From contig NC_092678.1 in the NCBI RefSeq assembly GCF_964355755.1, positions 23,354,365-23,418,364 of the forward strand: 64,000 bases of DNA. The letters are read 5' to 3'. Numbering within the stretch: position 1 is the first letter of the stretch; each line of letters opens with the position of its first letter. This document shows, one piece after another, positions 7,901-13,900 of this stretch. The notes beneath the pieces were generated by a model. That model saw only the letters and a list, made by a program, of their open reading frames with translations, was not told the origin of the DNA and did not search any database. This stretch comes from Antedon mediterranea. Its lineage: Eukaryota > Echinodermata > Crinoidea > Comatulida > Antedonidae. The position numbers and the translations under genes are program-made.

Positions 7901-10900
7901 GAGCGGACTAACTTGTCTAATTTATTCTATCATTTGTAGATAAAAATTATTTCTCATGTTAATTAATTAAACCAATTTCCTATCTAAAGATTTGTCTACA
8001 CTATCAAACTAGTTTGATGTGATGTGCCCAAATATGGTAGTGATATGACATCATTGTGTCCATATATGGGCACATCACATTTTTTTATCACATAAAATTT
8101 GATAGTGTAGACAGAGCTTAAGAAACATTTTCATAAATGTGAGTGAGTAGCCAAGCGGTTAAGAGAGTGGAACTGTAATTACGTTGCGGCAAAGGTTCGA
8201 AGCTCACTCACTGCATGGTTCTCGTGGTAGAAATTAGTACATCTTTGAGACGAGTAGGGGGTTACTCCGGTGTACTAGTACATCACAGCCACTGATTATA
8301 ACTGGGCCCTCTTAAATAGATAATAACTAACAAATAAATAAACCTTCCAAACTGATGGTTTTAAGAAAGTTAACATACATAAAAAGGATACACCTTGCTG
8401 ACACCAATAGGTATGTCTTTGATCATAGCATGTAGAAGAAACCTAGACATGTTGAACAGAGCATCTGGTAAGTGGGATGTGAATGGCTCATCCGTGTAGC
8501 GTTGAATGTTGTGGTAAACATTATAGATTTCTGCTCGTCGTTGAAAGTCGTGAAATTTTGAAAGCATCTCATCTTTCTTCTTTTCATCAGCTGGATAAGA
8601 ACAATTATTCGTTTTATTATATTATACTCAAAATCATTGAGCTAAAAAGACAAATTTTGACAATATTAAGCAACAACAAGTTTAACAAATTTACCTCCAG
8701 CAATTTCAAGACACTGCATCGACAACATCCAATAATAGTACCCAGCATCGTTGAATCTATTCTCCATGACGGCATTGTGGGTAAGCTGTTCCAACACCTT
8801 GACAGCATCAGACTGCCGCCCTGCTTTGTGGAAAGCTGCAATAGTGAGACGGACATACAATCTAATTAGGTAATCATACCGCCTAATATGGTAATCATAC
8901 AACCTAATATGGTGATCATACAACCTAATATGGTAATCATGCAACCTAATATGGTGATCATAAAACCTAATATGGTAATCATACAACCTAATATGGTGAT
9001 CATACAACCTAATATGGTAATCATGCAACCTAATATGGTGATCATAAAACCTAATATGGTGATTATACAACCTAATATGGTGATCATACAACCTAATATG
9101 GTGATCATACAACCTAATATGGTAATCATGCAACCTAATATGGTGATCATAAAACCTAATATGGTGATCATACAACCTAATATGGTGATCATACAACCTA
9201 ATATGGTGATCATACAACCTAATATGGTGATCATACAACTTAATATGATGATCATAGATATATTAATAAATTTTACATCTATTATTATTTACCTTTCTGA
9301 GCTTCCTCAAACCGATCATTTTCAGCTAACCATTGCGCATAAGGTACATAAACATCATCCTACATGACAGAAAGAAAAGACCATTCATTTAAAAAACAAT
9401 AATTGGCTATTAATTAGGCGCAAGATACTAGGAAGTTGACCCCGTGTAAGAACTGGCAATTTAAAAGTTAAGCATAGAGGAATAAGAGGATGTCTACAGA
9501 TAAGAAACAAATGACATTCAGATTGGAGGGAAAAACAGATAGAAGAATTGTTGAGTTGGCGTACAAACAAATCTTCTACAGCCATGACTACTTGCCTTAT
9601 ATTCACTGTGTCTTTCAACCAGGTTAAACGCAGCTTCCCAGTTCCGTGATTCAACGTGCAAGAGCGTTAACTGCTTCGTGTCTCCCATCTTGGTATACGT
9701 CTCTGCCGCGTACGCATACTGTTCCATCTTCTTAAAGTATTTAGCACACTTATTCAACGCCTCACGTTCTGCTTTATCTAACTTACGCGCAACATCGATC
9801 AACCTACACCAAAACATACACATTATAAATATCATATATAATTATTGATGGGCTAAAGAAAGGATTTAAAATAATTTTTTACTGCTATTTCTTTCTTAAG
9901 AACGTATCGTATATTGTTCTATATATGAAGTATGTAGCGTACTGAACACATGGTACCATCATAACAACTTTTTACTCTTTATTATATAAACTACACCAAA
10001 ACATGTTTCTGAATGTGTGCATAATGAATTTTTCTAGTTATAAAAAACAAAGAAGGTATAGCTTTTAGTACTTTTCTTGCTACTTAATCTTACAATACAG
10101 TACATACTATTGTTAGTAATTACATGTCACCAACCCCAACCACCCCACCCCCCAACCCCATGGAACCCCTATGACCTCTATTAGTACTCACATGTCACCC
10201 AAGCCATGGTCCCCTATGATCTCTATTAGTACTCACATGTCACCACACCCCCCCCCCCTCCCCCTCCTCCAACCCCCATGGTCCCCTATAATCTTTATTA
10301 GTACTCACATGTCACCACACCCCCCCCCCCCTCCTCCAACCCCCATGGTCCCCTATAATCTTTATTAGTACTCACATGTCACCACACCCCCCCCCCCCTC
10401 CTCCAACCCCCATGGTCTCCTGTAATCTCTATTAGTACTCGCATGTCACCACACCCCCCTCCCTCCTCCAACCCCCATGGTCCCCTATAATCTTTATTAG
10501 TACTCACATGTCACCACACCCCCCCCCCTCCTCCAACCCCCATGGTCCCCTATAATCTTTATTAGTACTCACATGTCACCACACCCCCCCCCCCCTCCTC
10601 CAACCCCCATGGTCTCCTGTAATCTCTATTAGTACTCACATGTCACCACACCCCCCCCCCCTCCTCCAACCCCCATGGTCTCCTGTAATCTCTATTAGTA
10701 CTCACATGTCACCCCCGCCCCCCCCTCCTCCAACCCCCATGGTCCCCTATAATCTTTATTAGTACTCACATGTCACCACACCCCCCCTCCTCCAACCCCC
10801 ATGGTCCCCTATAATCTTTATTAGTACTCACATGTCACCACACCCCCCCCCCCCTCCTCCAACCCCCATGGTCTCCTGTAATCTCTATTAGTACTCGCAT

Positions 10901-13900
10901 GTCACCACACCCCCCTCCCCCTCCTCCAACCCCCATGGTCCCCTATAATCTTTATTAGTACTCACATGTCACCACACCCCCCCCCCTCCTCCAACCCCCA
11001 TGGTCCCCTATAATCTTTATTAGTACTCACATGTCACCACACCCCCCCCCTCCTCCAACCCCCATGGTCTCCTGTAATCTCTATTAGTACTCACATGTCA
11101 CCACACCCCCCTCCCCCTCCTCCAACCCCCATGGTCTCCTGTAATCTCTATTAGTACTCACATGTCACCACACCCCCCTCCCCCTCCTCCAACCCCCATG
11201 GTCTCCTGTAATCTCTATTAGTACTCACATGTCACCACACCCCCCCTCCCCCTCCTCCAACCCCCATGGTCTCCTGTAATCTCTATTAGTACTCACATGT
11301 CACCACACCCCCCCCCCCCCTCCTCCAACCCCCATGGTCTCCTGTAATCTCTATTAGTACTCACATGTCACCACACCCCCCTCCCCCTCCTCCAACCCCC
11401 ATGGTCTCCTGTAATCTCTATTAGTACTCACATGTCACCACACCCCCCCCCCCCTCCTCCAACCCCCATGGTCTCCTGTAATCTCTATTAGTACTCACAT
11501 GTCACCACACCACACCCCCCTCCTCCTCCAACCCCCATGGTCTCCTGTAATCTCTATTAGTACTCACATGTCACCACACCCCCCCCCCCCCCCACCTCCC
11601 TCCAACCCCCATGGTCTCCTGTAATCTCTATTAGTACTCACATGTCACCCCAGCCATGGTCCCCTATGATCTCTATTGCTTTGAGATGTTCACCAGCTGA
11701 TAGGTACATGTCGGCCGCTGCTCTTGGTTCATTGATGTTCTTCGCCCAATCAGCTTGTTTACTTATCAACATCTTCTTGTCTTGTGGGTCACCGGCACCA
11801 ATATAATCCTGAAATTTATACAATTATAATTTAACAAAAATATGGGTAAATTTGGAAATGAAAACTAAAAAGATTGATATCAATGTAAAAGTTTAAATGT
11901 AATGTTTTAAAAACATTTTTTTCCAATTAAACGAGACAAAAGATACATACAGTAACTTGTTTTTTATTTTATATGATTTTAAAAATTTGATAACTTGAAT
12001 ATAAAGGTTTTTTCTTATAAATTGCTATAATAAACACAGAAGTTCCCTAACCTTTGCATGTTCAAACATCCTGAGGTCAGTATACATGTTCAGGGCACGC
12101 TGAGGTTGACCCGCTCTTTTATACAATTTAGCAGCTTCAGAAAACTTTCCTTGATACGCATAAATATCAGCCAAAAATAGCTGGTCATCGTATTCACCTC
12201 TTCGTCGTCTTTCCTAAAAAAGAAATCAGTGTAACTCAAAATGGTATGATGTGCCCAAATATGGTAGTGATATGCCCAAATATGGTAGTGACATCATCAT
12301 GTCCATATATGTTTACACATTCACATTTCATTGTCACATAAAGTTTGATAGTGTGGACAGAGCTTTATTATAATAAAAATATAGCATTTTTAAAGTAACA
12401 ATAAACAGACAAGTTCATTCTTCTCCTTTGCATACTGACACAAGGTTAAAAATATACATAATAAAATTAGTTTAAAAAGTTACCTCAATGTTATGTATGA
12501 GTTCCAAATATCTAAGATCCCTCGTCCTAATGAATGCCCTCTTAGCAGTGACAAAGTCTAAACTCTCAATAGCTTCATGTGCTAGTGATTGCCAATTCTT
12601 GTCTGTTACTCCCATACAAGCCACACGATATGCATCCCTAAAAATATAAATCAATTTTATAAATAACTTTTCCGACATACATATTATACAATTACTTTTT
12701 TTTCACTGTTTTACTTTTGAGAGATCACTGTTCAAGAGATGTCTTTGGGACCCAACACTGAATAGGGCTTGGAAATAGTGGTAAAACATTCATTGCCTCT
12801 CATTCATTTCACAGGAAAGTGACTTCTTAATAGGGATTCTACTCTATAAAGAAAAACCGTACTTTGATGCAAATAGTAATGCACATGATAAACATATCTT
12901 TTAAAGACTTTTAAATGGCCTGAATTTGTATAAGATTAAGTATTGAAAAAACAAGTGTAAAGGTCTTTCTACACTATCAAACTTTATGTGACAAAAAATG
13001 TGATGTGCCCATATATAGACACGATGATGTCATATCACTACCATATTTGGAGATATTACTGAAACACTTGGGCACATCACACTTTTTTGTCCCATAAAGT
13101 TTGATAGTGTAGACAGAGCTTTATATATTTACTTGAACTGCTTGCGTTCTAAATATTGATACATAGGTGCAGACTGCGGCACCTCTACTGCCACCATGGC
13201 ATACACATGTAGGCAGAATATCTTGGAGCCACAGAAGCCAACTACAAAGCCCTGAAGCTTCTGCTGATGAACAGGAAAGTTGCTGGCCTTGATGTTCAGT
13301 AAACCATTGCCTGAGAAACACAGCATATCATCACACTGCGTATTCCACGCCACACTGTTTGCATTTGGTTCCTGGAGATAATAATAATATACACAATTTC
13401 TAATAACATTGCAAACTTCAACTAAAGCCAAAGTATAGTCATGTCCCGGGACCACTCTATAGCCTCCACGGATAGACTTTCTTTATCAGTGCTTCTGCAA
13501 ATGGATGACTTTTGGAAGCAGGAACTCTAGTAGACCAAACCAAGTATGGTTTTGATTTCAATCATTCAGAAAATTTCCTCATTAAAAAAACATTTCAACA
13601 TTAACATGTCAAGTAGTCTTAGTACAGGGCTCTTAAAACATTTTAGTAGAGCTGTAGCTTGGTGGATAACTCGCTTGCCTTCCCATCGCAAGGTCCCAGG
13701 TTGGATTTCTGACCTAGTATCAAGGTTGTTTTTACTCCACTTCCCAAGTTTCAAATTAGACAATTATCTTAAGGCATAAGGTCATGGGTCAGATTATTAC
13801 TCTTAACAGAGAAGCACAAAGATATGTCGAAAAAATTACAGAAAAATAGTCTATGGTTGCTTTACCTGATATAACAGTTCTTTACTGTTGACGTCATACA

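What the first reader, a model, noticed from the sequence alone, without database searches (positions are those of the whole stretch)
10125..11660. A minisatellite that has multiplied an exon/intron junction: 22 decoy splice donors beside the real one
Read on the IFT122 strand, each 65-70 bp unit repeats the end of exon 15 (GACCATGG...GTGACAT) and its donor GTGAGTACTAATAGAG. I count 22 decoys before the genuine donor at 11641; two of them (near 10437 and 10893) have mutated to GCGAGT, the rest keep GTGAGT. The G-run in every unit plus GGTTGGAGG gives the pre-mRNA repeated G-quadruplex-prone segments. The outermost unit is more exon-like than inner ones. If decoys are used, transcripts would gain multiples of a repeat and shift frame; if silent, something must favour the first donor.
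Basis: partly seen in the sequence, partly recalled or inferred. Interest (0 to 1): 0.78.

Follow-up and report, generated by a model that had tools for sequence, protein, structure and literature searches.

The report
Repeat array multiplies a splice donor
In the cilium gene IFT122 of an unnamed animal, the last bases of one exon and its splice signal have been copied 22 times into the next intron, and at least four other genes of the same genome show the same thing, so the cell must reliably choose the first of many near-identical cutting signals.

Summary
On the minus strand, the end of an IFT122 exon (167 nt, 11808-11642) and its donor GTGAGT (first intron base 11641) are repeated through most of the 1.84-kb intron. 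There are 22 further donors (20 GTGAGT, 2 GCGAGT) plus one degenerate GTAATT. Joining donor 1 to the acceptor at 9805-9804 gives a gapless match to human IFT122 (E 6.6e-53). Reading past donor 1 gives ATG-TGA, so all decoys give the same premature stop (GDM*).

It is not a one-off. Donor-junction arrays also sit in DHX8 (37 bp), TDP2 (31 bp) and eIF3L (29 bp), each with donor 1 restoring a gapless conserved protein. A coiled-coil gene (17 bp) and four weaker candidates look alike.

The kind is known: the human IFI6 minisatellite and the CBS 31-bp VNTR. Most likely these are junction-seeded minisatellites, tolerated because exon definition picks the first donor and any decoy mRNA is null. Without RNA data or related genomes, donor use is inferred. 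New here are the copy number and the recurrence in one genome. Enrichment at junctions over chance is not shown.

The parts
11642..11808 (-).
   Evidence: Acceptor AAATTTCAG just upstream; peptide [13 protein letters not shown]...GDHGWGDM aligns to human IFT122 residues 737-792
11636..11641 (-). Genuine splice donor GTGAGT (first of the series)
   Evidence: Joining here to the exon at 9803 gives [15 protein letters not shown], gapless against human IFT122 737-861, E 6.6e-53
10124..11649 (-). Minisatellite of 23 units (62-74 bp; one of 45 bp), each carrying exon-tail sequence plus a donor
   Evidence: TRF; unit listing
10192..10236 (-). Outermost 45-bp unit, lacking the G-rich insertion and nearly identical to the exon end; probable relic of the first duplication
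   Evidence: Local alignment score 85 against 33-41 for the other units and a shuffle maximum of 23
10893..10898 (-). Decoy donor mutated to GCGAGT
10437..10442 (-). Decoy donor mutated to GCGAGT
10118..10123 (-). Terminal degenerate donor GTAATT closing the array
9804..9805 (-). Acceptor AG of the intron
   Evidence: TTTTGGTGTAG|GTTGAT; restores codon AT|G and then LIDVARK
9596..9803 (-).
   Evidence: [19 protein letters not shown]...VERHSEYK aligns to human IFT122

Best explanation
A short tandem duplication copied the junction of an IFT122 exon: about 37 nt of exon tail plus the first 9 nt of the intron, about 45 bp in all. One copy gained a G-rich insertion, and the longer unit then multiplied inside the intron to about 22 copies. 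The array is a tolerated passenger. The spliceosome, defining the exon forward from its acceptor, commits to the first adequate donor (11641) and removes the whole array with the intron. Any leak to a decoy gives the same null mRNA, with a stop immediately after the exon and several exons downstream, so it should be degraded by nonsense-mediated decay. Shown here: homology, anatomy, the unique locus, coding consequences, conservation of the protein only with donor 1, and recurrence in other genes. Inferred: which donor is actually used, the exon-definition mechanism, NMD, and neutrality.
For: Anatomy: 20 of 22 decoys are identical to the real donor over at least 21 nt. Only donor 1 gives a protein collinear with human IFT122, and all 23 others give GDM*. 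The same layout recurs in genes whose first donor alone gives the conserved protein. In DHX8, donor 1 gives ...EPPGDILMFLTGQEEID, E 3e-33, and 21 decoys give ...EPPGKLYANSFN*. In TDP2 the joined exons score E 4e-35, with read-through VSEHQPT*. In eIF3L the joined exons score E 6e-28, with read-through VSGCTDYSHW*. These are conserved genes, so donor 1 must be used much of the time. The published view is that donors are found by a processive search from the acceptor downstream to the first donor of sufficient strength (PMC4329672). The array lacks polypyrimidine tracts on the sense strand (longest Y run 4 nt), so it cannot easily supply acceptors. Variant order along the array, from exon-like to GATTATAGGGG to GATTACAGGAG types, fits stepwise amplification.
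Against: There is no RNA evidence of which donor is used. Classical two-donor minigene work (from memory: Reed and Maniatis 1986; Eperon and colleagues) found that of two equal donors the one nearer the acceptor often wins, which predicts the opposite choice; here the last decoy would be used. In human IFI6 downstream repeat units are used as donors (PMC4526556), so complete silence is not a given. No relatives were held, so age and neutrality could not be tested.
Confidence: 0.72

Rival explanations
1. The decoys are used often enough to matter. Each copy drains a share of pre-mRNA into one null, NMD-targeted product, so array length sets IFT122 dose, as suggested for the CBS 31-bp VNTR.
For: Decoys equal the real donor in sequence. 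Precedents: IFI6 repeat units serve as donors (PMC4526556), and the CBS VNTR is associated with enzyme activity and homocysteine level (title of Lievers 2001 as cited in PMC2630376). All decoys converge on one stop, giving a simple dose effect.
Against: Conserved genes (DHX8, eIF3L, TDP2) carry the same arrays, so leakage must be bearable. No RNA or polymorphism data.
Confidence: 0.17
2. The array has a positive role. The 22 U1-binding sites and G-runs strengthen the first donor or protect the nascent transcript from premature polyadenylation (U1 telescripting), and are kept by selection.
For: Donor sequence is kept as GTGAGT in 20 of 22 copies and G-runs of 6 or more in all but one unit. G-runs just downstream of a donor are known splicing enhancers (general knowledge).
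Against: The donor hexamer is not more conserved than the rest of the unit: it holds one of about four variable positions outside the G-run, as expected of recent amplification. The other arrays (DHX8, TDP2, eIF3L) are not G-rich.
Confidence: 0.05
3. Units act as mini-introns or micro-exons. Each holds a donor, a branch-like TACTAAT and AG (TTACAG), allowing recursive splicing within the array.
For: TACTAATAGAGATTACAG is present in the GATTACAG-type units.
Against: No polypyrimidine tract on the sense strand (longest Y run 4 nt). The AG lies about 13 nt after the putative branch point. In other unit types the AG context differs (TATAG, CATAG).
Confidence: 0.03
4. Assembly artefact: copy number inflated or the array misassembled.
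For: Long G-runs and near-identical units are hard for assemblers (general knowledge); no tool result here points to it.
Against: Units differ by point variants in an ordered way, the flanks are unique and coding, and similar arrays occur elsewhere in the genome.
Confidence: 0.03

Closest known systems
Human IFI6 (G1P3, 6-16) minisatellite providing multiple splice donor sites (Turri, Cuin and Porter 1995, cited in PMC4526556)
   Same: A minisatellite at an exon end whose units each supply a splice donor beside the real one
   Different: From memory the IFI6 unit is only 12 bp. In IFI6 two downstream units are reported in use, giving three mRNAs (PMC4526556). In IFT122 any decoy use gives an immediate stop. 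Here the same layout recurs in several genes of one genome
Human CBS 31-bp VNTR, c.1444_1467+7(16_21) (PMC2630376)
   Same: Almost the same anatomy: by its name the unit is 24 nt of exon end plus 7 nt of intron, in 16-21 copies. IFT122 is about 37+9 with 22 extra donors, DHX8 about 28+9, TDP2 about 23+8
   Different: Longer unit with a G-rich insertion in IFT122; no population data here; decoy consequence is an immediate stop
CBS 844ins68 (PMC2630376) and intron gain by tandem duplication (Rogers model; potato RdRp, PMC4974935)
   Same: Tandem duplication of a splice junction
   Different: Those are single duplications, of the acceptor side in 844ins68, or give a new intron. Here the donor side is multiplied more than 20 times and no new intron is evident

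Membership tests
Minisatellites spanning an exon-intron donor junction (IFI6 / CBS VNTR kind) | Tandem array of 10-100 bp units abutting the real donor | tested here: met
Minisatellites spanning an exon-intron donor junction (IFI6 / CBS VNTR kind) | Unit contains exon tail plus a functional-looking donor | tested here: met
   20 GTGAGT and 2 GCGAGT decoys; alignment scores 33-85 against a shuffle maximum of 23
Minisatellites spanning an exon-intron donor junction (IFI6 / CBS VNTR kind) | Real donor confirmed by protein conservation | tested here: met
   Joined exons gapless against human IFT122, E 6.6e-53
Minisatellites spanning an exon-intron donor junction (IFI6 / CBS VNTR kind) | Repeat units actually used as donors (IFI6) | not testable with these tools
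   No RNA data available
Minisatellites spanning an exon-intron donor junction (IFI6 / CBS VNTR kind) | Copy number polymorphic among individuals (CBS) | not testable with these tools
   One assembly only
Intron gain by tandem duplication | Duplication supplies both GT and a usable AG with pyrimidine tract, making a new intron | tested here: not met
   Longest sense-strand pyrimidine run in the array is 4 nt; joined protein collinear with human IFT122, so no new intron is needed
G-quadruplex array | Canonical G3+ x4 motifs on the transcribed RNA strand | tested here: inconclusive
   G-runs of 6-15 per unit in all but the 45-bp unit; three merged canonical motif stretches found on the sense strand; folding not measured

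The most novel reading that the evidence does not exclude
This genome carries a whole class of donor-seeded arrays, tens or more, because duplication is more frequent or better tolerated at 5' splice sites than elsewhere, while acceptor-side arrays are selected against. The arrays would then record a strict in-vivo 'first donor wins' rule and could act as tunable poison-donor dose controls.
Probability: 0.15. Interest if true: 0.75.

Novelty: new member of a known kind. Interest (0 to 1): 0.5.

Why it matters
How a spliceosome picks one of several equal 5' splice sites is usually studied in two-donor minigenes, where the donor nearer the acceptor often wins (from memory). Here nature offers 20 or more donors with identical local sequence in conserved genes (IFT122, DHX8, TDP2), plus a further array in eIF3L, where protein conservation says the farthest-upstream donor must be used. 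RNA from this one species would directly measure position effects on donor choice with sequence held constant. Array-length variants would show whether such repeats tune gene dose, as proposed for human CBS.

Tried and rejected
- COX1 search to name the organism found nothing.
- Donor against acceptor asymmetry: clear cases 4 of 22 donor arrays against 1 of 26 acceptor arrays (Fisher p 0.16). With probable cases 8/22 against 2/26 (p 0.03). Base rates of true splice sites among the motifs were not matched, so this is not claimed as a result.
- Enrichment at junctions: AGGTAAGT occurs 12,558 times. Many of these may be true donors, so a sizeable share of arrays at junctions could be plain chance seeding.
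- RNA accessibility of donors (unpaired probability): all low (0.0006-0.03), with donor 1 not distinctive (0.007), so local secondary structure does not explain first-donor choice.
- A bias of units toward mostly-exon content was suggested by the first five cases, but eIF3L (3 nt of exon) and L091 (5 nt) broke it.
- Arrays L072, L073, L075, L076, L077, L080, L082, L084, L086-L090 and L092 showed no clear coding exon at the first donor and were not counted (L072 is ambiguous).
- The 1995 IFI6 paper and the 2001 CBS paper were not held; they are cited through later papers.

Full report
What is there. It ends in phase 2 (GGT GAC AT) at a donor whose first intron base is 11641. The peptide [56 protein letters not shown] matches human IFT122 residues 737-792. 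The next exon starts at 9803, after AG at 9805-9804. The joined protein is gapless against human IFT122 737-861 (E 6.6e-53; Pfam TPR_IFT122, E 2.3e-52). The intron is therefore 1838 bp, and about 1.5 kb of it is the array (TRF period 67, 21.6 copies, 93% matches).

Counting the donors. The series CAT|GTGAGTAC recurs with 22 further GTGAGT or GCGAGT donors. Two are GCGAGT (10898 and 10442), and a final degenerate GTAATT is at 10123. Twenty decoys match the real donor from -8 to at least +13, and ten of them match it for 43 nt of intron. The 19-mer around the donor is found nowhere else in the 354-Mb genome at 0-1 mismatch. Units align to the exon end with scores 33-41, and 85 for the 45-bp outermost unit, while shuffles reach 23 at most. 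The finding's own refutation test, no homology beyond chance, therefore fails.

How it grew (inferred from unit variants). The outermost short unit (10192-10236) is 45 bp, has no G-rich insertion and reads like the exon itself (AATAGAGATCATAGGGGACCATGGCTTGGGTGACAT). Distal units are a mixture of GATTATAGGGG and GATTACAGGAG types, and all units nearest the exon carry GATTACAGGAG. A simple history is one 45-bp duplication of the junction, a G-rich insertion in a copy, then repeated amplification with the most derived type nearest the exon. The donor hexamer is not specially conserved: it holds one of about four variable positions outside the G-run.

What decoy use would do. The junction codon is AT|G and the intron starts GTGA, so reading past donor 1 always gives ATG-TGA. 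I spliced every donor to 9803 in silico: donor 1 gives [14 protein letters not shown], and all 23 others give GDHGWGDM*. The number of units retained is irrelevant.

It is not alone. I searched the genome for triplets of spaced donor motifs (with one array) and read the flanks of 22 arrays. Four are clear junction arrays. DHX8 (L071, 37 bp, 21 decoys) gives, with donor 1, a gapless DHX8 match across the array (E 3e-33), and all 21 decoys give EPPGKLYANSFN*. TDP2 (L074, 31 bp, 27 donors) has joined exons at E 4e-35 and read-through VSEHQPT*. eIF3L (L085 and L120, 29 bp, only 3 nt of exon in the unit) has joined exons at E 6e-28. A coiled-coil exon (L078, 17 bp, 23 donors) has a clear acceptor upstream but no identified family. 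L079, L081, L083 and L091 are probable. DHX8 is itself a spliceosomal helicase.

The acceptor side. Of 26 acceptor-motif arrays read, one is a clear acceptor-junction array, a few copies of 39 bp before the DDX54 exon RVARAGRSGTAFSMVAPDEL (L101), and one is possible (L105). The difference from donors is suggestive only (p 0.16 clear cases, 0.03 with probable ones), and the motifs' base rates differ.

Mechanism. Protein conservation in IFT122, DHX8, TDP2 and eIF3L requires donor 1, the one farthest from the acceptor. This fits the view that donor recognition searches downstream from the acceptor of the same exon to the first donor of sufficient strength (PMC4329672). It sits less well with classical two-donor experiments favouring the donor nearer the acceptor (from memory). 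Local RNA structure does not single out donor 1. The array has no pyrimidine run over 4 nt on the sense strand, so it offers no good acceptors. G-runs downstream of donor 1 may help it, but the other arrays are not G-rich, so they cannot be the general reason.

What is known. Human IFI6 has a minisatellite giving multiple splice donors, with downstream units in use (PMC4526556, citing Turri 1995). The human CBS 31-bp VNTR c.1444_1467+7, in 16-21 copies, spans 24 nt of exon and 7 nt of intron (PMC2630376). The present array is of that kind by anatomy. Use of the decoys and length polymorphism, the two functional features of those cases, could not be tested. New are the copy number with identical donors, the uniform stop outcome, and recurrence in at least four other genes of one genome. 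Enrichment over chance is not shown.

Limits. One assembly, no RNA, no relatives, organism unnamed, and a motif-based partial survey.

Noticed in passing
L071 (C1:17775200-17778200), L074 (C1:41206800-41210000), L085/L120 (C1:18595500-18599400), L078 (C3:18138500-18142000): Donor-junction minisatellites in DHX8 (37 bp), TDP2 (31 bp), eIF3L (29 bp) and a coiled-coil gene (17 bp); in the first three, joining from the first donor gives the conserved protein.
   Followed up: yes
L101 (C1:41235930-41236350): An acceptor-side junction array: a few 39-bp copies of intron end plus exon start just before a DDX54 exon.
   Followed up: partly
window 9590-9595 (minus strand): The next IFT122 intron appears to start with GC (K|GCAAGT ... 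AG|GATGATGTT), a natural GC-AG intron, so the two GCGAGT decoys in the array need not be dead.
   Followed up: no
window 5992-6147, 8854-9256, 14808-14956, 34059-34666 and others: A dispersed 21-bp minisatellite family (AATATGGTGATCACC / CATATCACTACCATATTTGGG types) fills several introns in the window. One array (5992-6147) starts about 9 nt after an apparent IFT122 donor at 6156.
   Followed up: partly
window 52383-55184 (plus strand), repeat 54941-55174: A 933-codon open frame whose end carries a 42-bp tandem repeat (5.5 copies, 96% matches), a period that keeps the frame.
   Followed up: no
G000 C3:20094304, 20598990, 20740765, 21384252, 21651932 (L079): The same 34-bp donor-containing array occurs at several places on one chromosome, possibly in a duplicated gene family.
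   Followed up: partly
G000 C10:7437236-7439896 (L094, L095): A 52-bp array of about 50 copies containing TTTGCAG; no coding exon found at either edge.
   Followed up: partly
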